From NCBI GenBank assembly GCA_944350365.1, contig CALVOU010000010.1, positions 1 to 37,004 of the forward strand: a DNA stretch of 37,004 nucleotides, given 5' to 3'. A program made the position numbers and the translations under genes. This document shows, in pieces, positions 5,486-36,416 of the stretch (the stretch's first letter is position 1; each line of letters begins with the position of its first letter). A model generated the notes under the pieces. The model saw only the letters and a program-made list of their open reading frames with translations. It was not told where the DNA came from and did not search any database. The stretch comes from an uncultured Bacilli bacterium. GTDB taxonomy: Bacteria; Bacillota_I; Bacilli_A; RF39; UBA660.

Positions 5486-8062
5486 TTACTTTTTTATTTT
5501 AACGATCTCTGCTTCAATTTCCTCATTACTTGGTAATACAATAATTTTACTACCTACTCGGTCAATATATTCTTCTATTGATGTACATCCTTCCGCAATT
5601 TGTTGCATGATTTTTCGTTGATTACAAATATAGTTCGCTAATTCTTCGATTGACATATTGGCCATATTTTCTAATTCAATTGGTTTTTCCCTTTTTTCTG
5701 TTGAATTAGGATCTTGAAGAATTGGTGTTTGTTGAAGTTGATCGGTTTGATAAGCCATTTTTATTTCATTTACTAACTGATCTACTTGAGATTGTATTTC
5801 TAGATTAGCAAAGTGAATATTTTGGTACTGAGTCATGACTTGATTATAATCTGTTTCATTATCAAATAGACGTAATTCTTCGCCATTTTGTCGTTTTTCT
5901 AACTGTTGATGAATAAAAAAGTCTATTCTAACTACATCTTTTAAGAAGTTTTCTTCTTCAGGTATTACTATCGGTTCATGATTAATAGCACTTTCTGCTA
6001 AATTAGCAAGTGTTTTGGCAACAACTGTTTCCGCCATTTGTTTCTTTTCCATACGTGGATAAGCAACTAGCCATAAAGCTTCTATGTTTTCTTGTAGTTC
6101 GTTTGATGAGGCATCTTTACTAATCTTGGATGCTGATATCAATAAATCGGCTAACTCAACGGCATTAATATCCGCTTCAGGATTTTCATTTAAGAAGGCT
6201 TCTACCCCATGAAAACGATTGGCTAATGCTACTACTTCTTCATTCACTTTTGGGATATCTGGAGTTTCTTGATTATCCTCTTTTGAATTTACTGCAGTTA
6301 CTTTTTCCTGTAAGTCTTTGGTATAAGCAATTTCAATCTCTTTAAATAAACGGTCGGCTAATTCTTGTGTAGTAGGCTCACTGAACTTCGTTTCCTGATA
6401 TGATTCTTTTAATTCGTTGAATTCGGATTCATTGTCATATAAGCGCAAACTTTGACCTTCTTCACGTCTTTTTGACTGTTCTTGGATAAAAGAATTGATG
6501 CCGATAAGTTTTTTTAAATTCTCTTCTTCTTGCGGAGCTACTCTAGATTTTCTTGCTCGAGCTCCTTTATATAAATGAGTTAACATATCTGTTAATGTAG
6601 TTTTCTCCAGATTATTTTTAGATAAACGTGAATACGCTCTCATCCACAGTTTATTTAGGCGAACTGATAAATCTACGCTTATTTTTTTTACTTTAGCGAT
6701 TTCCATGAATAGCTCACTAATATTTCTTGCGTTAATATTTTCCTCTGGATGTGTTGTTAAAAAATCGGTTTCTGATTTGATGCGTTCTTTTAATTTTTCA
6801 AGCGCTACTTTAGTAGGGGGTAAATTTTCTTCATTATTATCTGCTTCAACTTTAACTTCTTCTACTTTCTTTAATTCTGGTGATGAGAATGGTAAGCTAA
6901 TTCCATAAATTTTGTTTTCTGTTTTCGCTTTGGTAATTTCCGCAAATAAACAGTCAGTAATGGTAGCATAGGTTCCTTTTTGATTGTTTTGTTTATACAT
7001 TTCTCTTAGTTTTTTTAATGTTTCATACTCATTATCGTTATCATAAATCTTGTGATTATTATCTGAATTTATACGGTTTTGTCTATCTTCTTGTCTAGTA
7101 AAGAAAGAAATTTTCGCTAGATTTTTAATGTATTCTTCTTCTTTTTCTTCTACCGCGGGTGTTCCAGAAACTGCATTTCCTGTTAGCTGTAAAATCAATT
7201 GACAAAGGGATGAATTCTTTTCTAATTGAAGATCAGTATTTAGTAATCTATTTACTGCAGTTTGACTTAAGTCAATTATTCCATTGATAATTTCTTGCGT
7301 ATCTTTACTTTCGTGGGCTTGGTCCTTTTGAATTACTTTAGCACTATCTAATAAAATTTCTGTAATTTCATTCGCATTAATATCCACATCTTGATGTTTA
7401 GCCAAATAACGATTTAAGTTATCTACTCTATCCTTCAATAGTCTTCTGGTATTGTTATATTCTTGATCATCTGTCAACTGAATAGTTTCTAAAGGGCTAT
7501 AATTCATCGACATATCAGAATTTAACAACATATTATGTCTATTGGCTATTCTAACTTCGATATAAAGTAATTCTGCAATTTTTTGAAGCTCAGGTTCAAT
7601 ATTCTTCTTGCTTACTTTTTCCCTCAACTCTGTTAAAGAACTTAATTCTGTATCATTAGCATGTAATCTTTGAATACTTGCATTCCCTAAGCGACGACTA
7701 CGATCATTTTGATAAATACTTAAAGTTGCAGAAGCTAAAGTACGTAAATAGTCTTTTGTTTCCTTATCGATAGTTACTCTAATGGTTTTAGCATTTTCCC
7801 CCAGATAGACAAGTAATTGATAAAGAGCAGAATTTTCATTGATTCCCAAATCTTTGTTTGTCAGTCTTTCTGTTAATACTTGCTCGTACCGATTAACCCG
7901 TTCAATTAATTCTTTTTTTAATTCCATTTGTTCTAGGTTATTATATTTTCTTCCCTGTTCACTCGCATCAATAAACATCCTGACCGCTTCTTCAGCATTG
8001 ATATCGATGTTAGGATTCTCTTGCAAATACTTTAAAATATTTTCAATGTTTTTTCCAACCAT
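5486..8062 (-). CDS. Unrecognised 858-aa protein with four ~200-residue repeats
   Basis: I do not recognise a family. The protein is hydrophilic and mostly helical, with no signal peptide or membrane segment, so it is probably cytoplasmic. It consists of four diverged copies of one module. Each copy has a motif of the type NPxxDINAxE: NPNIDINAEE (17-24), HQDVDINANE (223-232), HPEENINARN (438-447) and NPEADINAVE (627-636). About 112 residues later each has a second motif: LHANDTEL (133), IYDNDNEYETL (339), LYDNESEFNEL (541), LFDNETDYNQV (732). A C-terminal tail (about 795-858) contains MSIEELANYICNQRKIM and is outside the repeat. ATG at 8062 has GAGGG upstream. A strong promoter and a terminator make it a single-gene unit. 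Confidence 0.9.
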   Translation of the reverse strand: MVGKNIENILKYLQENPNIDINAEEAVRMFIDASEQGRKYNNLEQMELKKELIERVNRYEQVLTERLTNKDLGINENSALYQLLVYLGENAKTIRVTIDKETKDYLRTLASATLSIYQNDRSRRLGNASIQRLHANDTELSSLTELREKVSKKNIEPELQKIAELLYIEVRIANRHNMLLNSDMSMNYSPLETIQLTDDQEYNNTRRLLKDRVDNLNRYLAKHQDVDINANEITEILLDSAKVIQKDQAHESKDTQEIINGIIDLSQTAVNRLLNTDLQLEKNSSLCQLILQLTGNAVSGTPAVEEKEEEYIKNLAKISFFTRQEDRQNRINSDNNHKIYDNDNEYETLKKLREMYKQNNQKGTYATITDCLFAEITKAKTENKIYGISLPFSSPELKKVEEVKVEADNNEENLPPTKVALEKLKERIKSETDFLTTHPEENINARNISELFMEIAKVKKISVDLSVRLNKLWMRAYSRLSKNNLEKTTLTDMLTHLYKGARARKSRVAPQEEENLKKLIGINSFIQEQSKRREEGQSLRLYDNESEFNELKESYQETKFSEPTTQELADRLFKEIEIAYTKDLQEKVTAVNSKEDNQETPDIPKVNEEVVALANRFHGVEAFLNENPEADINAVELADLLISASKISKDASSNELQENIEALWLVAYPRMEKKQMAETVVAKTLANLAESAINHEPIVIPEEENFLKDVVRIDFFIHQQLEKRQNGEELRLFDNETDYNQVMTQYQNIHFANLEIQSQVDQLVNEIKMAYQTDQLQQTPILQDPNSTEKREKPIELENMANMSIEELANYICNQRKIMQQIAEGCTSIEEYIDRVGSKIIVLPSNEEIEAEIVKIKK

Positions 8063-11447: not shown

Positions 11448-11471
11448 GAAAAAGAACCTTTTCAGATTCTT
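11445..11471 (-). terminator. Terminator after the adhesin gene
   Basis: 7-bp stem (11452-11458 with 11465-11471) with a 6-nt loop containing the adhesin stop codon, followed on the minus strand by TTTCTTT. It overlaps the -35 of the next gene's promoter. Confidence 0.55.
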
Positions 11472-13915
11472 GAACGTTTTATTTTTCGATAACCAAGAAA
11501 GATTCCTATTGATCCTAAGAGAATTAGCGAAGAATAATTTGTTTGTCCTTGAACAGGTGATATTCCCGTTTTGGGTGGTAACTCTATTTTATGATTAGGT
11601 ATGGTAAGCGTATAGGTTTTCTGATTCTCAATAATTTCTAGATAGTGTTCATTCTTATCTCTTTCATAACCAAATGGTGCTTCTTCTTCCACAACGTAAT
11701 AGTTTCCTAAGGGGATATCATAAAAATACGCTTTTCCATCTTGGCTACTATAAACACTGCCTAAATATTCGTTATTTTCGGTATAAAGAGAAAATTTCGC
11801 TTTACCGATCTTTGTTTTTGTATCAGCATCAATTTTTATAATTTCAATATCACTTTTCTTTAATGTGTTTTCAAAAGCTAATGTTAACTTTTGACTATGC
11901 GTGGTTAAATCGACAAAGTATTTATGATTATTTTCATCATATGGTTCTAACTTTTTGGTTTCAACGACATAATACTTTCCTAAAGGTAATTTACTACTTC
12001 TTGTTAACCCTTCTCGGTTAGTGGCTAAAATTTCTACTAATTGATCTTTTTGATAAAGAATGGTACCATCTTTGGTTTTTATTTCTTCACCAGCAAAAAT
12101 GGAAAATTCTACTCCTTCAAGGGGCATCATTCGGAAAGAAAGCCCTCCTGTTGTCATCATTACTTCGCCTTGTTTTTCTATTTCAATAATGCCATAAGCT
12201 CTTTGATTTTCTATTTCGACAAGAATTACTTCGCCATATAATGAATCGGGTAACGTTTCTGATACTTCTGAAATGGTGAACTCAAGAGGTTCTGTTTGTT
12301 GTTGATAACCAAATGGTGCGGATACTTCTTCTAATAGATATGTTCCTGTTAATAGAGGCATATCAGTAATAAAATACCCTTCATCATTCGTTTCAAATAT
12401 AGTCGTTTCACTAGGAATCGGTGTAGTCAGATGACGTACTACATATTCTCCTGTTGTTTTATTCTTAATCTTAAATTTTATTTTATCTTTAATTGGTAAT
12501 TTACTATCCTTATCGAGTTTAATGACTTTAACTCGGTAACCGATTTCTTCATTCTTTAACGTTATTGTTTGTTCCGTATCACTCGTCTCGCTGATTGTCA
12601 CGGTAAACGGTTTACTTAATTCATAGTTTTTCTTTCCTTTTATTTGAATGATTTTGTATGTTCCATAGGGTAATTCTATTTCTACTTTGCCTTGTTTATC
12701 GGTAGTTATTGTCTTGATTAATTCCTCTTTATTATTATAAACTTCGAACTCTGCATTTTCTTCTTCGATATATTCTCCTTTTTCCTTACTACCATAGTAT
12801 TTTTGAAGAATAATTTTCCCTTTATATACCTCGTTATCCCAATTCCAGATCAGTTGATGATCGTTCTTTCCAATAAGTATATAGCGTTCTTGCTCATCTA
12901 ATTTGTATCCTTTTCCTGCTTTTATTTCTTTAATTCTATAGTTTCCAGGTGGCAACTCTATTATATTAGAATAACCATCCTTTTGAATCATTAATTGCTT
13001 CACCAAACTTTTATCTGAATTGGATATTTCGAAGGTAGTTCCTACAAAACTCGCTTCTCCTTGTGGAGTCGAACTGCCAGTTTCTTTATCTCTTTTTTGT
13101 ATTTGAAAAGTACTATATGGTAATTCTACTTCTACTTCACTAGATATTTTATTGAAGCCACCACGAACAATTAAACTTTGACTCTCTAAGTCAACATAAA
13201 GTGTTGTCTTATTGGCTGATTCTTTCGATAGGATAATTTTAGATGTCCCTAATTGTGTAGATTTAACTCTTAGCTCATTCCCTTCTTTTTTTACCGATAA
13301 GTTTTCATCCGCCTGAATGGTAAAATTTTCTAATACTTGATTGGTATCTGTAAGAATATATTCTTCATTATAGGTAAGCTGATACTTCTGATTCACAAAA
13401 CTAGGTAGTTGGTTATGACTATCTACTAAACGTTCTAGTTCCGCAATCTCTGATTGATATTTATCTATTCGATTACCATTTAAAGTACCCGTAAAATAGA
13501 TTGTACTATCCGGTTCTAGTGTCTTCCAGATTAAATATTGGGTAACGGCATACCAATCTAGTGAAGTATGATCCTGATAACCGTAACCATAATAAGCAAG
13601 TAACTCGATTTTTTCCCAGAGTTCTTCCGATAAATTGATGTGATTTAGAAAGTCTTCTTGGTAACCAATGACCGGTTTTCCATCTAGTAATTCCTTCCAT
13701 ATCTCAATACAGTAAGCTACTTGCTGATCAGAGCTTCTTCTAAATACCCGCATTTGTTGATATCTTCCAGTAGATGCTCCCGGCTTAAACTTCTTAATAT
13801 AAGCACCACTAACATATTCTGCTTCATAGAAACTGTCAGTTAATGCTTTTACTTCTGTTATTTCTATCAAACTTAGTGATAGAAGTAATACAACTAATGT
13901 CCATATTTTTTTCAT
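11462..13915 (-). CDS. Wall-anchored thioester adhesin with Cna-B-like repeats
   Basis: An 817-residue surface protein. A signal peptide spans about 1-24 (KKIWTLVVLLLSLSLIE..., cut near VKA). Residues 30-140 resemble a thioester domain: Cys69 in QVAYCIEIW and Gln126 in WYAVTQYLIW fit the C and TQxxIW motifs whose side chains form an internal thioester. About five Cna-B/SpaA-type domains follow (about 266-362, 366-455, 462-570, 574-684, 688-774). Likely isopeptide residues are present, for example K694, E743 and N774 in the last and K466, E529 and N570 in the third. The C-terminus has the sortase motif LPPKTG (779-784; PPKTG also fits the (S/P)PxTG type), a hydrophobic helix and RKIKRSRI. Family knowledge suggests covalent binding to host or surface amines. 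ATG at 13915 follows AGGGGGAG. No sortase gene is in the window. Confidence 0.92.
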   Translation of the reverse strand: MKKIWTLVVLLLSLSLIEITEVKALTDSFYEAEYVSGAYIKKFKPGASTGRYQQMRVFRRSSDQQVAYCIEIWKELLDGKPVIGYQEDFLNHINLSEELWEKIELLAYYGYGYQDHTSLDWYAVTQYLIWKTLEPDSTIYFTGTLNGNRIDKYQSEIAELERLVDSHNQLPSFVNQKYQLTYNEEYILTDTNQVLENFTIQADENLSVKKEGNELRVKSTQLGTSKIILSKESANKTTLYVDLESQSLIVRGGFNKISSEVEVELPYSTFQIQKRDKETGSSTPQGEASFVGTTFEISNSDKSLVKQLMIQKDGYSNIIELPPGNYRIKEIKAGKGYKLDEQERYILIGKNDHQLIWNWDNEVYKGKIILQKYYGSKEKGEYIEEENAEFEVYNNKEELIKTITTDKQGKVEIELPYGTYKIIQIKGKKNYELSKPFTVTISETSDTEQTITLKNEEIGYRVKVIKLDKDSKLPIKDKIKFKIKNKTTGEYVVRHLTTPIPSETTIFETNDEGYFITDMPLLTGTYLLEEVSAPFGYQQQTEPLEFTISEVSETLPDSLYGEVILVEIENQRAYGIIEIEKQGEVMMTTGGLSFRMMPLEGVEFSIFAGEEIKTKDGTILYQKDQLVEILATNREGLTRSSKLPLGKYYVVETKKLEPYDENNHKYFVDLTTHSQKLTLAFENTLKKSDIEIIKIDADTKTKIGKAKFSLYTENNEYLGSVYSSQDGKAYFYDIPLGNYYVVEEEAPFGYERDKNEHYLEIIENQKTYTLTIPNHKIELPPKTGISPVQGQTNYSSLILLGSIGIFLGYRKIKRSRI

Positions 13916-23778: not shown

Positions 23779-24561
23779 TTATAATTCCTCGGCAAAACCT
23801 TTTTCTAATTTTCTAAATATCCGCAATCCTATATAGAATAAGATAATCGATGCAACTAGTACAAGTAACAACATCTGTATATCTGGCATAACCTGATAAT
23901 AGAAAATATCCCTATAGGCATTTATGATAACCGCCATCGGGTTTATCTTAATTAACCACTCTACTGCGCTACCAGCAAACATATCTGCCGAATATAAAAT
24001 GGGTGTTGCATAAAATAGCATATTTACAAAAAAATTAATGATATACTCTGAATCTCTGACATATACATCTATTGCACTAGTGATAAAGATAACTGCTTGT
24101 TGAATAATAAATTGTGTTAATACTACTAATGGAAAAAAGATAATTAGCCAACTAAAACCAATCCCACTAAAAATTAAAAATAAACACATGACTAAGCAAG
24201 AAATTAGAAAATTAATTACTCCACTTAAGTTCACAGAAATTGGGAATATTTCACGTGGGAAATAAACTTTTTTTAATATCCCCCCATTTCCCAAAATCGT
24301 TGTAGTACCTTGACTAATTACCGTGGTAAAATAATTCCAAGGTAAAATTCCAATTACTAGGTAAGTTACATAATGTGGCTCGGTATTCTTTAAAATTAAT
24401 GGAAACACAATTGCATAAACTAAGGTCATCAAGAGGGGATTGACAAATGACCAGAGTACTCCTAAAAAGGAGCCTTTATATTTTCCCCTTATTTCTTTTT
24501 GAACATTACTTTTTAATAACTGTCGATATGAATATAAATTATTTATCATTTCTTTCATCAT
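23779..24561 (-). CDS. ABC-2 polysaccharide exporter permease (Wzm/TagG/RgpC type)
   Basis: About 260 residues with six hydrophobic helices and the ABC-2 pattern: KEIRGKYKGSFLGVLWSFVNPL (about 20-41) is the conserved cytoplasmic entry of Wzm/TagG/RfbA proteins. It forms a homodimer channel that moves a finished lipid-linked polymer across the membrane. ATG at 24561 (or 24558) follows the ATPase stop codon by 1 nt; a GTG start within the ATPase gene is less likely. It is directly downstream of its ATPase partner. Confidence 0.93.
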   Translation of the reverse strand: MMKEMINNLYSYRQLLKSNVQKEIRGKYKGSFLGVLWSFVNPLLMTLVYAIVFPLILKNTEPHYVTYLVIGILPWNYFTTVISQGTTTILGNGGILKKVYFPREIFPISVNLSGVINFLISCLVMCLFLIFSGIGFSWLIIFFPLVVLTQFIIQQAVIFITSAIDVYVRDSEYIINFFVNMLFYATPILYSADMFAGSAVEWLIKINPMAVIINAYRDIFYYQVMPDIQMLLLVLVASIILFYIGLRIFRKLEKGFAEEL

Positions 24562-24562
24562 A

Positions 24563-25321
24563 TTATCCACACACCTTCAAGTATTCTTCCACTACTTTAT
24601 CCGTTTTTCCATCCATTCTAATTTCACCATCATAAATCCAAACGGCACGGTCGCATAACTCTCTTATTGAATCAAGAGCGTGACTAACAATTACGATTGT
24701 CTTTCCACTTTTTTTTAGTTCTTGTAATTTGGCAAAACATTTTTCTTGGAAATGTTGATCTCCAACGGCTAGGATTTCATCAATTAGTAAAATTTCAGCA
24801 TCTACATTTATTGCAACAGAAAAAGCAAGACGCATATACATACCTGACGAATAAGTCCTGACCGGATTATCAATGAAGCTACCAAGCTCAGAAAATTCAA
24901 TGATATCTCCTACTCTTTTATCAATTTCGGCAGCAGTCAATCCAAAGATAGAAGCATTAAAATAAATGTTCTCTCTTCCTGTAAAATCAGGATGAAATCC
25001 TGCTCCTAACTCTAATAGTGATGTCAACTTACCATTTATTTCAATGCTGCCACTTGTGGGGTAAATAATTTTTGTCATTAACTTTAACAATGTACTTTTC
25101 CCACTGCCATTTACTCCTATTAAAGCAACGGTTTCTCCTTTTTTGATATTTAAACTAACCCCATTTAATACTTGATGTTTTCCTACTTTTGTTTTATTCC
25201 AAAAAACTAATCTTTCTTTTAATGTAAAAGGCTTATCATAAATCAATTTAAACTCTTTTGAAACATTCTTTATCTTTATAGCAAAATCCTTTGAAGAATT
25301 TTTACTAGATACTTTAGGCAT
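24563..25321 (-). CDS. ABC exporter ATPase (Wzt/TagH/RgpD type), no C-terminal sugar-binding domain
   Basis: 252 residues. Walker A GVNGSGKST (69-77), ABC signature YSSGM (157-161), Walker B EILLIDE (176-182) and the switch histidine in SHALDS (about 214) are all intact. ELGAGFHPDFTGRENIY is typical of polysaccharide and teichoic acid exporters. The protein ends just after the nucleotide-binding domain, so the C-terminal carbohydrate-binding domain that E. coli O9a Wzt uses to recognise a capped chain is absent. It heads a new sub-unit after the decayed TnpB region, and the permease follows. Confidence 0.94.
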   Translation of the reverse strand: MPKVSSKNSSKDFAIKIKNVSKEFKLIYDKPFTLKERLVFWNKTKVGKHQVLNGVSLNIKKGETVALIGVNGSGKSTLLKLMTKIIYPTSGSIEINGKLTSLLELGAGFHPDFTGRENIYFNASIFGLTAAEIDKRVGDIIEFSELGSFIDNPVRTYSSGMYMRLAFSVAINVDAEILLIDEILAVGDQHFQEKCFAKLQELKKSGKTIVIVSHALDSIRELCDRAVWIYDGEIRMDGKTDKVVEEYLKVCG

Positions 25322-30044: not shown

Positions 30045-31061
30045 TCACCCCTCCCAATTTTTTAGATATTTACTTATGTATATTAGAAAGGGCTTTTTTC
30101 CAAATAAGCTTGGAAGAATTCTTTTATAAACATCTATATATGTAATATTGGCAGGTGTCGTGTGGTCTATTACCATTTGATCTTCATTTATTTGATCTGT
30201 TTTATTAAAAATTACTATTTCGTTTTCTTTTTTGCAAAGGATTAAATTATGGGAAATATTTCCCGACATCATAGATATCGTTTTTGCATGGTTTAAATAG
30301 TATATTTGATCGGATAATGATAATTTTTCTAGATAAATTATTCTATAGCCTTTTTTTCGTAAATATTGCTTGAGCTTTTGATCGTAATGATCAATGTTGT
30401 TGTTTGTTTCGGATACATGATCAACTAGGTAAATTTTATCTGGACATCTTTTTATATGCCTTCTTGCATTCTTTACAATCGTAGCTGTTAACTTTTCAAA
30501 CTCCTCAGAATAATATTTCTTTGCTACAAATGAACATTCAGGAATAATTATTTTTTTAAACTTCGTCGGTTTTTGGATATTAATTAACTGTTCCTTTTGA
30601 ATGCCTAATAATTCAAATAATTCTAAATACTTACCAGATATATCTGTTATTCCTTGATTCCAATTCCAACCACAATATACTATTTTATATTTTTTAGGAT
30701 CATCAATTACATACCACAATCTACTTATCTGATTGCATAGAAACTTTTCCCATTCCTTGATAAACGGTCCAAAGAAAACAACTTCTTCGTCGCTCTTATC
30801 TATATAATCTTCATTATATTCGTATTCTCCGCCAAATAAATCGCCAGAAGCTGATTCTTCTACGAAATTATTGTTTTTATCCATTATGCCACCAATTGCC
30901 CATAATTTGGGTTCTATACTGAAATCTTGCTTAGCTGGTAATATAACAGCATCTTCAACGATTTTAACACTCATTTTAGTTTTTGTTTTATACTGTTGTT
31001 TTTCATACTTTATATAAATTGGTTTTTGATTTGATTTCATATACAAACTTCTATACTTCAT
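30045..31061 (-). CDS. GT61-family (DUF563) glycosyltransferase
   Basis: 338 residues resembling capsular-polysaccharide GT61 proteins: VVFFGPFIKEWEKFLCNQISRL (about 95-115) corresponds to the family's HWGHF/RLW segment, IIIPECSFVAKKYYSEEF follows, and a C-terminal YLEKLSLSDQIYYLNHAKTI leads into SGNISHNLI, where this family has its conserved S-G-x-x-x-N acceptor/donor site. There is no membrane segment. ATG 31061 has AGGTG upstream; ATG 31040 is an alternative. Donor sugar unknown. It lies between a short GT2 and the GtrA-fusion gene. Confidence 0.75.
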   Translation of the reverse strand: MKYRSLYMKSNQKPIYIKYEKQQYKTKTKMSVKIVEDAVILPAKQDFSIEPKLWAIGGIMDKNNNFVEESASGDLFGGEYEYNEDYIDKSDEEVVFFGPFIKEWEKFLCNQISRLWYVIDDPKKYKIVYCGWNWNQGITDISGKYLELFELLGIQKEQLINIQKPTKFKKIIIPECSFVAKKYYSEEFEKLTATIVKNARRHIKRCPDKIYLVDHVSETNNNIDHYDQKLKQYLRKKGYRIIYLEKLSLSDQIYYLNHAKTISMMSGNISHNLILCKKENEIVIFNKTDQINEDQMVIDHTTPANITYIDVYKRILPSLFGKKPFLIYISKYLKNWEG

Positions 31062-31068
31062 ATTACAC

Positions 31069-31980
31069 CTATATTAAAAATATATTAGACGTTTTCTTTT
31101 TAACTAATACACACGACTTATCTAATAATGCCGGGTTCATATATTGAATGATATTTCTATTCTTAGGAAAAAACAGAACCTGTTCGGACGCAATAGTAGC
31201 CATTCTTTCCTTTAATTCTGGATAATAAGTAGTATTCTTTACCACACTGACATCTTCTTTAAAAAATATAGTAGAAACTGCTTTATCATCTATAATTGGC
31301 CTAATGGCTTGATAGATCCAATATTTACTATCGATTACCCTATTTTGATCAATGAAAACTACATATTTACCATGTATACTAGATAAACTTCGTTCGTAAA
31401 TTTCATCGTTAGTTAATTGGTTATCTTTTACATAGATGATTTTAGCTTGAGCTTTTCTGGCATAGTTTAGTGTATTATCCGTACTTCCTCTATCAATAAT
31501 GATAATCTCGATATTTTCTAATAATTTTTGGTTGCTTAAATTTTTAAGTTGAACAGTAAATTCTTCCCCAGCATTGTAGGTAAATATAAGGATAGATACT
31601 TTTTCTTTTACAGGTACAAAGTCTTTTATCATAGAAAGTTCCTGTACAAATTGGTAATTGTCTTTTTTCATTTTCCGTTTTACTTTTCGAGAAACAATTC
31701 TAAATGGTATAGTGATTTTCCACCAAAAAGAGTTTAATAAATAATTTATATATTCGTTATCGATCATAATCGTTCTAACTAGTTTGGCATTTTCATCATT
31801 TAGCCTTTTATTTTCGGCAAGCAAATTATCTTTGTCTGCATATTGATTCACCAGAAAATCTTCTTGGGCTTTTAGTAATGTTTGAAGGGCTTGATTGTTT
31901 ATTAAATCATTGTTGTTTTGCTCTTTAAATATAGCTTTCTGATCTCTATCTATAATTTTAGTAGTGGGATTTTTTGGCAT
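31069..31980 (-). CDS. Short GT2-like protein with N-terminal coiled coil, possibly inactive
   Basis: About 303 residues from ATG 31980, 1 nt after the epimerase stop codon, with AGGTGA upstream. Residues 30-75 form a coiled coil (ENKRLNDENAKLVRT), then LLNSFWWKITIPFRIVSRKV, a basic amphipathic segment common in Firmicutes polysaccharide enzymes. The GT2 domain begins KVSILIFTYNAGEEF with IIIIDRGSTDNT. The usual DxD place reads FIDQNRVID, so the second metal aspartate is missing. Only about 180 residues follow the GT2 start, and no catalytic-base motif is visible. It may be a truncated or non-catalytic partner rather than an active transferase. Confidence 0.75.
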   Translation of the reverse strand: MPKNPTTKIIDRDQKAIFKEQNNNDLINNQALQTLLKAQEDFLVNQYADKDNLLAENKRLNDENAKLVRTIMIDNEYINYLLNSFWWKITIPFRIVSRKVKRKMKKDNYQFVQELSMIKDFVPVKEKVSILIFTYNAGEEFTVQLKNLSNQKLLENIEIIIIDRGSTDNTLNYARKAQAKIIYVKDNQLTNDEIYERSLSSIHGKYVVFIDQNRVIDSKYWIYQAIRPIIDDKAVSTIFFKEDVSVVKNTTYYPELKERMATIASEQVLFFPKNRNIIQYMNPALLDKSCVLVKKKTSNIFLI

Positions 31981-31981
31981 A

Positions 31982-32905
31982 TTAATCACCTGACTTATTT
32001 TCTTTTTTTCTGCTGATTATTTTTTGGATTCCTTGTTCTAGAGTTATTTCTGGCTGCCATCCTGTTTCATGCACTATTCGATCAATATCTAAAACATTGT
32101 TTCTTACATCACATTTTCTAGCATTGGCATAAGATACGGTAACACTTGTATCCATTTCCTTTTGAAGCAATTTTAATAAATCATTTATAGAACATCCAAT
32201 TCCTGTACCTACATTAAATACATTTTCTTCTCCTTCATATTCAATTACTTGAATCATGGCATTAATCGCATCTTCTATATATATATAATCTCTAATATCA
32301 TTGCCATCTCCCCAAATTTTTACTGTTTCTCCTTTTATTATTTGGTCGATTAGAATAGGGATTATTCCTTGTTTTTTTCCCTTTTTTACCACTTCACTAT
32401 ATGGATTAGCTAGACGAATTATACGGTAATTTAAATTGTAATAAAGATAATATAATTTTAGATATTTTTCGATTAGCTCTTTTATAATTCCGTAGTTACA
32501 AATTGGTTCTTTTGCTTCATCTTCTGAAATTAGTGCCTCACTATGTTCTCCATAAACAGTACCACCTGATGAAATAAAAACTATTTTCGGGGTATGACAT
32601 TTTACCATATTTTCTAATAATCTAATCGTTGGGAATACGTTTTCACTGATCTCCTTATTAATATTTTCTGTTTTTTCATTAGGGCCTATTGTTGATATAA
32701 GGTGAATGACTACATCAATATCTTCTAAGTATTCGCTGAAATCTTCACAATTAACAAAATCTAACTTCTTGTATTGGATGTTTTCGTGTTCTTCGGCATG
32801 CTCTATATTATAATCGGCGACAATCACTTTATTATTGTTTGCTAAACGTTCGGTGATATATCTTCCTATAAATCCATTCCCACCTAATATTAAGTACTTC
32901 TTCAT
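31982..32905 (-). CDS. NAD-dependent sugar-nucleotide epimerase/dehydratase
   Basis: 307 residues of the extended SDR family. Rossmann motif GGNGFIG (8-14), ISSGGTVYGE (serine of the catalytic triad) and NYGIIKE (catalytic Tyr and Lys), then NPYSEVVKKGKKQG and RDYIYIEDAI. The pattern is closest to UDP-GlcNAc/UDP-glucose 4-epimerase-type and related WcaG-like enzymes. The substrate cannot be fixed; it is clearly distinct from the galE at the other end of the locus. Its start overlaps the GT4 stop codon by 4 nt, so the genes are translationally coupled. Confidence 0.9.
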   Translation of the reverse strand: MKKYLILGGNGFIGRYITERLANNNKVIVADYNIEHAEEHENIQYKKLDFVNCEDFSEYLEDIDVVIHLISTIGPNEKTENINKEISENVFPTIRLLENMVKCHTPKIVFISSGGTVYGEHSEALISEDEAKEPICNYGIIKELIEKYLKLYYLYYNLNYRIIRLANPYSEVVKKGKKQGIIPILIDQIIKGETVKIWGDGNDIRDYIYIEDAINAMIQVIEYEGEENVFNVGTGIGCSINDLLKLLQKEMDTSVTVSYANARKCDVRNNVLDIDRIVHETGWQPEITLEQGIQKIISRKKENKSGD

Positions 32906-34215
32906 TTTAATTCCTCCTGTATTAACTGCATAATTTTTCTTTCAAAGATTCCGATTTCAAAATAGTTCTCATATATCTGTCTTCCTTTTCTCTTTATCTC
33001 TTCTAAGTCTGTTTTATAATCAATGATGTATATAATTTTTTTATACAGTTCATCACTATTATCACTTTGAAACACAAACCCATTTTCTTTATCTTCAATA
33101 TAGTAGGAGGTGCCTGTCCTATTTGAACATAGACAGATATTTCCCAACATAAAATTTTCCGTTGCAACAACTGGCATAGGATCATCTATCGAAGCTAATA
33201 CCAATACATCGATAGCATCGTATATTTTATATAGCTCTGTTCTAGAAACTGATTTATACAGTTTAACATTAGCATGTTCTTTTGCGTATTCTTGAATTTC
33301 TTGTTTTATATTCATGCCTTCTAAATCATTTTCATATGGATCACCTATGAAAATGAATTCAGATTTGTTTTGGTATTTTTTTTCCAATTTTTGAATTGCT
33401 TTTAATAATACGAGTTGCCCTTTCCTCTTTCCAATTGTACCCGCTAATAGAAAACGTACTTTATTATTATTTTCACTTGATTTTTTACTCAATTCAGCTT
33501 CATCAAAAACGCCATAGTTTAAAACATTGGGATAATAATGGTATCCACGTATAGCCAATTGATCAGCCGCATATTGTCCTCCACAAAATACTTTGATATT
33601 AGGGGTTATATTTTTTGGCATACCAGAATCTAAGATATTATAGGATTCTGATCCTTCATGAATCCACCAAAAGATTCTTTTTCTTGTATTAAAATATCGG
33701 CGAACAAAATTGTATAAGGTAGCTGTCACCATGATGGTAATATCAAAGTTGTTTACAAATATATCTAGATCCATTTTATCAAAAAAATGACATGTTTCTG
33801 ATCTCAAATATTGAACATATTTCATCTGTGGCATAATGATAACTGGAGCACCAATATTTAAAAACTCTTCCATTAACGGTCCATCTTTTAGTGAAATAAC
33901 TGTGACAAAATAATTATTTTTCACTAGAACTTTGGCAGTATCTAAAACGACAATAGGTGCGCCCGTTCTACTTAGTTCATGAGTAACTAAAAGAATATTT
34001 TTCGAATTATTCGTAAGACTTTTGGATGGATAATAAATATAGTTGATACTACTTCTATATAGTGGCTCATGTATTATTTTTTCTTCATTTATATGATTGT
34101 TTATTAATTTTTTTAAATCTTTTATAAAATTATCTGATGGGATATTATTTTCATTATTAAAATACTTTTCCATTGAAAATTCATCCTGCTTCACATTACT
34201 ATTTTCGCTGTTCAT
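32902..34215 (-). CDS. GT4-family glycosyltransferase
   Basis: About 437 residues. A poorly conserved N-terminal extension (about 1-70) precedes the GT-B fold: ILLVTHELSRTGAPIVVLDT, WWIHEGSESY, FLLAGTIGKRKGQLVLLKAI (donor domain), and an EX7E-like site around IDDPMPVVATENFMLGN. The start at ATG 34215 is preferred because GGTGAT lies 4-9 nt upstream; ATG 34227 is possible. It is the second gene of the locus, after the methyltransferase-kinase gene, and overlaps the epimerase gene. Confidence 0.9.
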   Translation of the reverse strand: MNSENSNVKQDEFSMEKYFNNENNIPSDNFIKDLKKLINNHINEEKIIHEPLYRSSINYIYYPSKSLTNNSKNILLVTHELSRTGAPIVVLDTAKVLVKNNYFVTVISLKDGPLMEEFLNIGAPVIIMPQMKYVQYLRSETCHFFDKMDLDIFVNNFDITIMVTATLYNFVRRYFNTRKRIFWWIHEGSESYNILDSGMPKNITPNIKVFCGGQYAADQLAIRGYHYYPNVLNYGVFDEAELSKKSSENNNKVRFLLAGTIGKRKGQLVLLKAIQKLEKKYQNKSEFIFIGDPYENDLEGMNIKQEIQEYAKEHANVKLYKSVSRTELYKIYDAIDVLVLASIDDPMPVVATENFMLGNICLCSNRTGTSYYIEDKENGFVFQSDNSDELYKKIIYIIDYKTDLEEIKRKGRQIYENYFEIGIFERKIMQLIQEELK

Positions 34216-34235
34216 CTTTATCACCATTCACTATA

Positions 34236-36359
34236 TTATTTTTTTAGTTTCCTAATCTTCTCTAGCATCCTCCATCCTTTACTATTCAGTAATTCTTTTA
34301 GTTCTTTATCTAAATTTTCTTTCTCTTTAGATAATTTTCTATTATATTCTTTTAGTTTTTTGTTTTCTTGTTCTAAGTTTTCTTTTTCTTGAAAGAATTG
34401 TTTCTGTTCAATAGCAGATAATTTCTCTAATTTTATACTTATGGTTAGCTTTTCCTTATTGTATGGGAAAACAATATACGGATGTTCTGCTGTTAATATC
34501 TTTTTGTGATTAAACGAATTGATATTGTATTCATCATAGTCAATCCTTCGACCATTTATTTTTATATCACTAAAATACATTAATTTGTTTCCCATTATTA
34601 TCGGATCAAAACGAACTCTTAAAACTTTCTTGGGTAGTGTAAAATCAACTATATATTCATCAGTTGTTTTACCAGTTTTATATTTATTTATTAGTTTGTT
34701 TTTTTCACAAAAATCGTTACCATCATCATAATAAATAACAGTTAAGAGTTCTTCTTTATCAGATTGACTATTTCTACAACCATCTAAAATATGTTTCTTG
34801 TTTGTGTTTATCACCCGTTGGTATTTTGTAAAATAATATTTTTCTATTTGATTAAACAATGTTCTTTTATTATTCGTAATCCCATATTTTTTATAAATAC
34901 GCTCAATGGATAGATGTTTAGATATTAAATTATTTGTACTAAAAATATAAGCTAATGAATAATATATTAAATACTCTGTTGGCAACTCTTTATCTATTTC
35001 CCATTCTTGATCTATAAATACATATTCACCTTTTTGATTTTTTATAATATTGGAAGCATTTCCATCCATGAGAGCTAATTTCATCACGTACGTTTCGCTT
35101 TTATAGGTCGTTTTTACTTCGTCAATAATTGGGTTGGTAATTTTCTTTTTAACAGAAATAGAATAGTAAAAAGACACTAGATTATCTATTTCTTTTTCGA
35201 CAAGTTCCCATTGATTTCTCTTAGATAATTCAATGATATATTCAGCAACATTTTCTCCTTTAATCCGTTCTATTAGATATTTCCCATTTTGTTCTTCAAT
35301 ATCACATATTTTAATATTCAACGCTTTTACTTTTTTATGAATTTCAACTAATTTATCTAAATGTAATTTGGCTTTGGGGTTATCAGGAATTTTATAGATA
35401 TTATGTTTTTCATCTTCTAGGGTAATCGTCTTAAAATCTAAATTTCTATAATCCAGATTCCTAGCGTAAATAATATTTGATAGTGTCGAGCTATCAAAAC
35501 CAAACTCAATTAAAAATGAATTTGAAAAAAAGCCAAAAGCCTCATTTTCGACTAAACCGCTTATCGTTTTTAAAACATCAAAATTTATCTTGCTTCCGTA
35601 TGGGTAAATTGGTATTGAAGATATTTCATTTTCTTTTGGCAATCTTTTATCTGTATATACAATCGTAGGTAATTTATAATCGGGAAATGGGTAATAAAAT
35701 TTATTTTTTGTAAAGCCGTGTTTCGTTATTAAGTTAATTAGTTCTTTTTGTCCAAAAGTTTGTACCTTATATGTCTCATATCCTTCTAATCCTACATAAG
35801 GCTTAACGATATGATCTTCATTCGCACCAGCCCAATATTTAATACCATATCTGTTTTCTATAGCTAATAATACTTTGCCAGTTGATTTTAGTAATTTTTT
35901 GATTTTCTCTAAAAATTCATCAAACGGATTGTTAGAATCAAAAAATAATTTTGCGTATTCAAAAACTCCAATCAAAATAATGTAATCAAATTTTTGTTTA
36001 ATTTTAATATCATTAAAGTTTCCTGCATATACTTCTAAATTATCTTTATTTTGATGGCGATAATAAGTAATTTCTGCTCTTCTTTTTGATCCTTCAACGC
36101 ACACTACGTTTTGGCACTTTTCACAGAGGGTACCCGTTAAAGTACCACAACCACATCCTATTTCTAATACTTCGTCTTGTTTAGTAAACGGATACCAATT
36201 TAAGATATTCTTTCTTACATCTGTAACTAAGTAAAAAATATCTTCCTTAGTTTGATCGAGTGGTTTTCCACTTTTATAATGTTCTAATAATTTTTCTTCA
36301 ACATTACCATCATTGTAAATGTTTTTTCCGTCATAATATTTTAAGTTTAATTTTGCCAT
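34236..36359 (-). CDS. Methyltransferase-kinase-coiled-coil protein, WbdD-like layout
   Basis: About 707 residues, first gene of the polysaccharide locus. (1) A SAM-dependent methyltransferase at about 40-240, motif I VLEIGCGCGTLTG (about 65-76), then IILIGVFEYA. (2) A kinase-like domain at about 280-530 whose catalytic loop reads LMDGNASNI and whose metal-binding motif is FIDQEW (about 449-453), as in choline/aminoglycoside kinases. (3) A beta-rich module (about 540-645) with VRFDPIIMGN. (4) A C-terminal coiled coil (about 650-690) ending in LLNSKGWRMLEKIRKLKK. E. coli WbdD has the same order of methyltransferase, kinase and coiled coil and caps O9a chains to stop growth. Homology beyond layout is unproven. 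ATG 36359 has AGGGG 7 nt upstream. Confidence 0.85.
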   Translation of the reverse strand: MAKLNLKYYDGKNIYNDGNVEEKLLEHYKSGKPLDQTKEDIFYLVTDVRKNILNWYPFTKQDEVLEIGCGCGTLTGTLCEKCQNVVCVEGSKRRAEITYYRHQNKDNLEVYAGNFNDIKIKQKFDYIILIGVFEYAKLFFDSNNPFDEFLEKIKKLLKSTGKVLLAIENRYGIKYWAGANEDHIVKPYVGLEGYETYKVQTFGQKELINLITKHGFTKNKFYYPFPDYKLPTIVYTDKRLPKENEISSIPIYPYGSKINFDVLKTISGLVENEAFGFFSNSFLIEFGFDSSTLSNIIYARNLDYRNLDFKTITLEDEKHNIYKIPDNPKAKLHLDKLVEIHKKVKALNIKICDIEEQNGKYLIERIKGENVAEYIIELSKRNQWELVEKEIDNLVSFYYSISVKKKITNPIIDEVKTTYKSETYVMKLALMDGNASNIIKNQKGEYVFIDQEWEIDKELPTEYLIYYSLAYIFSTNNLISKHLSIERIYKKYGITNNKRTLFNQIEKYYFTKYQRVINTNKKHILDGCRNSQSDKEELLTVIYYDDGNDFCEKNKLINKYKTGKTTDEYIVDFTLPKKVLRVRFDPIIMGNKLMYFSDIKINGRRIDYDEYNINSFNHKKILTAEHPYIVFPYNKEKLTISIKLEKLSAIEQKQFFQEKENLEQENKKLKEYNRKLSKEKENLDKELKELLNSKGWRMLEKIRKLKK

Positions 36360-36416
36360 TTCCACACCCCTGTCACTATAGTTTTTTTATTATTCTGTCT
36401 CAATTGATTAATTTCT

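What the first reader, a model, noticed from the sequence alone, without database searches (positions are those of the whole stretch)
34236..36359. WbdD-like chain-capping candidate in a Gram-positive polysaccharide locus
The first gene combines a methyltransferase, a choline-kinase-like phosphotransferase domain, a beta module and a C-terminal coiled coil. This order matches E. coli WbdD, which methylates/phosphorylates the chain end and uses its coiled coil as a length ruler. It sits in the same locus as an ABC-2 exporter. If functional, it would be a length-control system for a wall polysaccharide in a spore-former.
Basis: partly seen in the sequence, partly recalled or inferred. Interest (0 to 1): 0.72.

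Follow-up and report, generated by a model that had tools for sequence, protein, structure and literature searches.

The report
O7-type glycan-capping enzyme in gut Bacilli
A gene in a spore-forming gut bacterium encodes a two-headed enzyme (kinase plus methyltransferase) of a type known to put a methyl-phosphate cap on the end of growing surface sugar chains in Klebsiella O7; the same enzyme family turns out to be present in about half of sampled Lachnospiraceae genomes, but here the exporter lacks the part that normally recognises the cap.

Summary
In detail: window 34236-36359(-) encodes a SAM methyltransferase, an unannotated domain with an APH/choline-kinase fold, a beta module, and a short coiled coil with a basic tail. 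Catalytic positions are conserved (D434 and N439 in 34/34 relatives, D452 in 33/34, K325 in 32/34). The protein works like WbdD in outline but belongs with a different family, the methyltransferase-kinase terminator of Klebsiella pneumoniae O7 (ORF6-N, PMC11231755), which has this domain order and caps chains with methyl-phosphate. All six published SAM-site residues map onto the window protein. The family is widespread in Gram-positives: 179 of 348 Lachnospiraceae genomes have it, and 164 of these also carry Wzt_C, the transporter domain that reads caps (11 genomes have Wzt_C alone). In this window's genus the pairing is broken. Wzt has no Wzt_C domain, lies 9 kb away, and is conserved in 14 of 17 genomes, whereas the capping gene is in only 4. 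The coil is about 64 A, against about 200 A in WbdD. Best reading: a real capping enzyme in a swappable glycan cassette, with export probably not cap-gated and the ruler role unproven.

The parts
34236..36365 (-). methyltransferase-kinase gene (MTK); GTG at 36365 or, likelier, ATG at 36359
   Evidence: 93% identical copy in G012/L002
35493..36365 (-). SAM methyltransferase domain, residues 1-291; G70, G72, E91, Y17, Y45, Y137 match the SAM-site residues published for Klebsiella O7 ORF6
   Evidence: CgnL 7pd7 Z 16.0; natural gene breaks in relatives fall at its end
34821..35486 (-). kinase domain, residues 294-515, APH/choline-kinase fold; K325, D434, N439, D452
35064..35066 (-). codon of invariant catalytic-loop Asp434, equivalent by alignment to D441 of O7 ORF6 (D441A inactive, PMC11231755)
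   Evidence: literature
34422..34751 (-). beta module, residues 539-648, at the place of the Ig-like CBM of O7 ORF6
   Evidence: moderate confidence; position compared with PMC11231755
34287..34415 (-). short helix/coiled coil, residues 651-693, six heptads, about 64 A
   Evidence: heptad pattern p=0.018
34239..34286 (-). basic C-terminal tail GWRMLEKIRKLKK, helical, probable membrane or partner contact
   Evidence: function inferred
32902..34227 (-). GT4 glycosyltransferase, next gene of the cassette
31982..32905 (-). NAD-dependent sugar epimerase/dehydratase
31069..31989 (-). GT2 glycosyltransferase
30045..31061 (-). GT61-family glycosyltransferase
24563..25321 (-). Wzt, nucleotide-binding domain only (252 aa), no Wzt_C cap-reading domain
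23779..24570 (-). Wzm, ABC-2 membrane component

Best explanation
The protein is a bifunctional terminator of the Klebsiella O7 ORF6-N kind. Its APH-like domain phosphorylates the non-reducing terminal sugar of a lipid-linked glycan on the cytoplasmic side, its methyltransferase then methylates the phosphate, and the methyl-phosphate cap stops elongation; the beta module may hold the glycan, and the short coil and basic tail may keep the enzyme near the membrane and the glycosyltransferases. Wzm-Wzt then exports the chain without reading the cap, because this Wzt lacks the cap-binding domain. Shown here: predicted domain folds, conservation of catalytic residues, homology across the family, family-wide pairing with cap-reading Wzt and its absence here. 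Inferred: phosphorylation and methylation of a glycan end, termination, cap-blind export.
For: Same domain order as O7 ORF6-N, shown in vitro to add phosphate then methyl and inactivated by D441A (PMC11231755). Published residues Y28, Y66, G91, G93, E112, Y158 fall at exactly the same numbers in a Pseudomonas plasmid relative and map to Y17, Y45, G70, G72, E91, Y137 here. D434 and N439 invariant in 34/34. Kinase fold nearest to APH enzymes, as the paper found for O7. In 348 Lachnospiraceae genomes the enzyme and Wzt_C co-occur: 164 both, 15 enzyme only, 11 Wzt_C only, 158 neither; 47 of 49 loci inspected have a full-length Wzt upstream on the same strand within about 3 kb, mostly adjacent. Window Wzt has no Wzt_C and no cap-reading domain is found elsewhere in the window or genome. 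Ten of the 14 genus genomes with this Wzt lack the enzyme.
Against: No activity data for any Gram-positive member. The O7 ORF6 sequence was not held, so membership rests on published residue numbers and a plasmid relative. In two proteobacterial relatives the N-lobe lysine column holds H or R, and in one D452 is E. All characterised terminators work with a cap-reading Wzt (PMC11231755), which is absent here. The glycan structure is unknown.
Confidence: 0.55

Rival explanations
1. It is a decoration enzyme: it phosphorylates and methylates a side chain or the end of a short branch, giving antigenic variety but not setting the length of the main chain.
For: The exporter core is conserved without it in most of the genus, and the gene sits in a variable cassette. 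The coil is short and Wzt cannot read a cap.
Against: Elsewhere the family is tied to cap-reading Wzt, which fits main-chain ends; the characterised member is a terminator (PMC11231755).
Confidence: 0.25
2. It is a true WbdD-type system: cap, long coiled-coil ruler and cap-gated export.
For: Same broad domain order; Foldseek lists WbdD 4ax8 and 4azt for the whole model.
Against: Extra beta module; coil of 43 residues (about 64 A) against about 200 A; no Wzt_C; sequence and profile searches of the PDB do not list WbdD among the hits shown; kinase model nearest to APH enzymes.
Confidence: 0.08
3. The kinase domain is inactive and the protein only methylates the glycan end, as in E. coli O8 WbdD or Geobacillus WsaE.
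For: The catalytic loop lacks the usual HGD histidine (LMDGNASN here); methyl-only caps are known in a Gram-positive spore-former (WsaE, PMC2943079).
Against: K325, D434, N439 and D452 all present; O7 ORF6 is an active kinase needing D441 (PMC11231755); conservation is strong across the family.
Confidence: 0.1

Closest known systems
Klebsiella pneumoniae O7 ORF6-N methyltransferase-kinase terminator (PMC11231755)
   Same: Methyltransferase, unannotated APH-like kinase, Ig-like beta module, coiled coil in that order; SAM-site residues and the catalytic Asp align; CgnL and aminoglycoside-phosphotransferase folds are the near neighbours in both.
   Different: No fused GT2 modules; short coil; Gram-positive host; partner Wzt has no cap-binding domain and is not adjacent.
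E. coli O9a / K. pneumoniae O3 WbdD
   Same: Methyltransferase then kinase then coil in a protein of about 700 residues, ABC-exported glycan.
   Different: Different kinase family by the O7 authors' account; no beta module in WbdD; coil about 200 A; export gated by a cap-reading Wzt.
Geobacillus stearothermophilus WsaE (PMC2943079)
   Same: N-terminal methyltransferase thought to cap an ABC-exported glycan in a Gram-positive spore-former.
   Different: Methyl cap only, no kinase, fused to rhamnosyltransferases.
C. difficile SLCT-11 S-layer glycan (PMC6254364)
   Same: Gram-positive, ABC-exported glycan ending in a phosphorylated rhamnose proposed to end synthesis.
   Different: No kinase was named in the text read; cyclic phosphate rather than methyl-phosphate; whether its locus holds this family was not tested.

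Membership tests
K. pneumoniae O7 ORF6-N type terminator | Methyltransferase SAM-site residues (Y28, Y66, G91, G93, E112, Y158) | tested here: met
   Map to Y17, Y45, G70, G72, E91, Y137 through a Pseudomonas plasmid relative with identical numbering
K. pneumoniae O7 ORF6-N type terminator | APH-like kinase domain with essential catalytic Asp (D441) | tested here: met
   Fold. D434 and N439 invariant in 34 relatives; equivalence to D441 is by alignment position (D443 in the Pseudomonas relative)
K. pneumoniae O7 ORF6-N type terminator | Ig-like beta module after the kinase | tested here: inconclusive
   A beta module is predicted at the right place, but its fold was not searched alone
K. pneumoniae O7 ORF6-N type terminator | Coiled coil beyond the catalytic domains | tested here: met
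   Helix 651-693 with heptads, p=0.018; short
K. pneumoniae O7 ORF6-N type terminator | Direct sequence similarity to ORF6 of O7 itself | not tested
   The O7 sequence was not in the collections reached
K. pneumoniae O7 ORF6-N type terminator | Transfers phosphate and methyl to a glycan end | not testable with these tools
   Needs an enzyme assay
Terminator systems with cap-gated ABC export | Cap-binding C-terminal domain on Wzt (Wzt_C, PF14524) | tested here: not met
   Window Wzt is 252 aa and matches ABC_tran only; full-length Wzt query matches only the nucleotide-binding part in the genome; none in six frames of the window
WbdD | Kinase homologous in sequence to WbdD | tested here: inconclusive
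   No WbdD chain among listed sequence or profile hits; Foldseek lists 4ax8 and 4azt at whole-model level
WbdD | Long coiled-coil ruler (about 200 A) directly after the kinase | tested here: not met
   Beta module intervenes; coil about 64 A (PMC5082667)
WbdD | Phosphate-handling residues His132, His133, Arg203 in the methyltransferase | not tested
   No residue-level superposition was available

The most novel reading that the evidence does not exclude
A cap-writing terminator works with a cap-blind transporter: in this genus chain ending by methyl-phosphate is uncoupled from export, so the enzyme is an exchangeable module of a wall-glycan cassette rather than an export licence.
Probability: 0.35. 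Interest if true: 0.6.

Novelty: new member of a known kind. Interest (0 to 1): 0.5.

Why it matters
Methyl-phosphate terminators of the O7 kind were reported from proteobacteria and cyanobacteria (PMC11231755). Finding the family in 51% of sampled Lachnospiraceae, tightly paired with cap-reading Wzt, predicts phosphate-capped surface glycans across dominant human gut Gram-positives. It also offers a candidate type of enzyme for phosphate-ended glycans such as the C. difficile SLCT-11 S-layer glycan, and the window's genus is a natural case of writer without reader that can test whether capping and export are separable.

Tried and rejected
Pfam and NCBIfam gave only the methyltransferase. The VIA-align list for the whole model was filled by methyltransferases, so it says nothing on the kinase; WbdD is not among the 50 rows shown for the kinase-only model, which excludes nothing. 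Two scans of viral contigs found no relative; two records labelled phage (L038, L039) carry it, but L038 at least is plainly a bacterial polysaccharide locus. E. coli genomes gave no match to the Citrobacter gene. The beta module did not match the Wzt cap-reading domain (hhalign probability 0.4%). A search of papers found nothing on this family in Lachnospiraceae, within an incomplete library.

Full report
What is there. Residue numbers below count the GTG as 1. Pfam sees only a class I methyltransferase. AlphaFold2 on a 31-row alignment gives a methyltransferase (1-291), a kinase-like domain (about 294-515), a beta module (539-648), a helix (651-693) and a terminal helix (mean pLDDT 81.5). 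The kinase region folded alone (pLDDT 81.7) is closest to aminoglycoside phosphotransferases: APH(3')-Ia Z 12.8 over 192 residues at 4.0 A, choline kinase LicA Z 10.1, with Bud32 and RIO kinases also listed. From memory, the spacings D-N of 5 and D-D of 18 are those of APH(3')-IIIa.

What family. A literature search led to Kelly et al. 2024 (PMC11231755). In K. pneumoniae O7 the N-terminal part of ORF6 is a methyltransferase, an unannotated 223-residue kinase closest to the aminoglycoside-type kinase AmiN, an Ig-like module and a coiled coil. It adds phosphate, then methyl, to the terminal rhamnose; D441A is dead; the authors call it distinct from WbdD. A Pseudomonas plasmid relative of the window gene has Tyr, Tyr, Gly, Gly, Glu and Tyr at exactly the six published SAM-site numbers, and these map to Y17, Y45, G70, G72, E91 and Y137 here. 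CgnL, the paper's nearest fold for the methyltransferase, scores Z 16.0 here. In about 20 relatives the methyltransferase and kinase are two adjacent or overlapping genes, broken at the same domain boundary, which supports the domain cut and shows that the two parts need not be one chain.

Spread and pairing. With the profile, 179 of 348 Lachnospiraceae genomes have the family. With a profile of the Wzt C-terminal domain (Pfam Wzt_C; its solved relatives are ABC-transporter Wzt domains), 175 have that domain, and 164 have both (odds ratio 157; p about 1e-65, not corrected for shared ancestry). In 47 of 49 loci read, a full-length Wzt of about 420-600 aa lies upstream on the same strand within about 3 kb, mostly directly adjacent. 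The same arrangement occurs in Bacilli G299 and G296, Blautia, and the two proteobacterial plasmids. This is what a cap writer and a cap reader should look like.

What is odd here. The window's Wzt is 252 residues, nucleotide-binding domain only, 9 kb from the enzyme, and no cap-reading domain was found in the window or, with the full-length Wzt as query, in the genome. Fourteen of 17 genomes of the genus have this short Wzt but only four have the enzyme, one as a fragment at a contig end. In relatives the Wzt-Wzm core stays at 70-98% identity while the neighbouring glycan genes differ; among the relatives examined, the block from the enzyme to GT61 is shared only by the window and G012. G003 has a 36% identical enzyme without the beta module, also far from a short Wzt. 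So the exporter evidently does not need a cap in most of the genus, and the enzyme belongs to a variable cassette. Some genomes are incomplete, so single absences are soft.

Length ruler. The coil is 43 residues, about 64 A, with a heptad pattern at p=0.018; WbdD holds its active sites about 200 A from the membrane (PMC5082667). Most Lachnospiraceae members end after the beta module without a coil by a crude scan. A ruler is possible here but not supported.

How it most likely works: as in Best explanation, with chain capping as the favoured role (0.55) and side-chain decoration as the main rival (0.25). Known Gram-positive precedents are the methyl cap by WsaE in Geobacillus (PMC2943079) and the phosphorylated terminal rhamnose of the C. 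difficile SLCT-11 S-layer glycan, whose authors proposed a capping role (PMC6254364). Capping of ABC-exported glycans in Gram-positives is therefore not new; the O7-type enzyme there, its spread, its pairing with Wzt_C and the broken pairing in this genus appear new within the papers I could search.

Noticed in passing
L134-L139, L141-L151, L012, L038, L068, L071: The methyltransferase and kinase are often separate adjacent or overlapping genes, split at the same domain boundary, many with one in-frame stop (TAA, TAG or TGA) followed closely by a new start; repeated gene fission or translational coupling.
   Followed up: partly
window 23779-25321; L093-L104: Short Wzt without a cap-reading domain and its Wzm are a conserved core in 14 of 17 genomes of the genus, surrounded by exchanged glycan genes.
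   Followed up: partly
window 11462-13915: Large surface protein with a thioester (TED) domain and five SpaA repeats beside the glycan genes; in G003 a similar SpaA-like protein and a probable sortase lie directly upstream of the capping gene (L087 12854-15635).
   Followed up: no
window 5486-8062: 858-residue open frame without any Pfam match between glycosyltransferase genes and an ankyrin-repeat gene.
   Followed up: no
L008 record title: The closest named genome is called Candidatus Scybalousia intestinigallinarum; NCBI taxonomy now places that species in Bacilli as Alloscybalousia, while Scybalousia itself is a Bacteroidales genus.
   Followed up: yes
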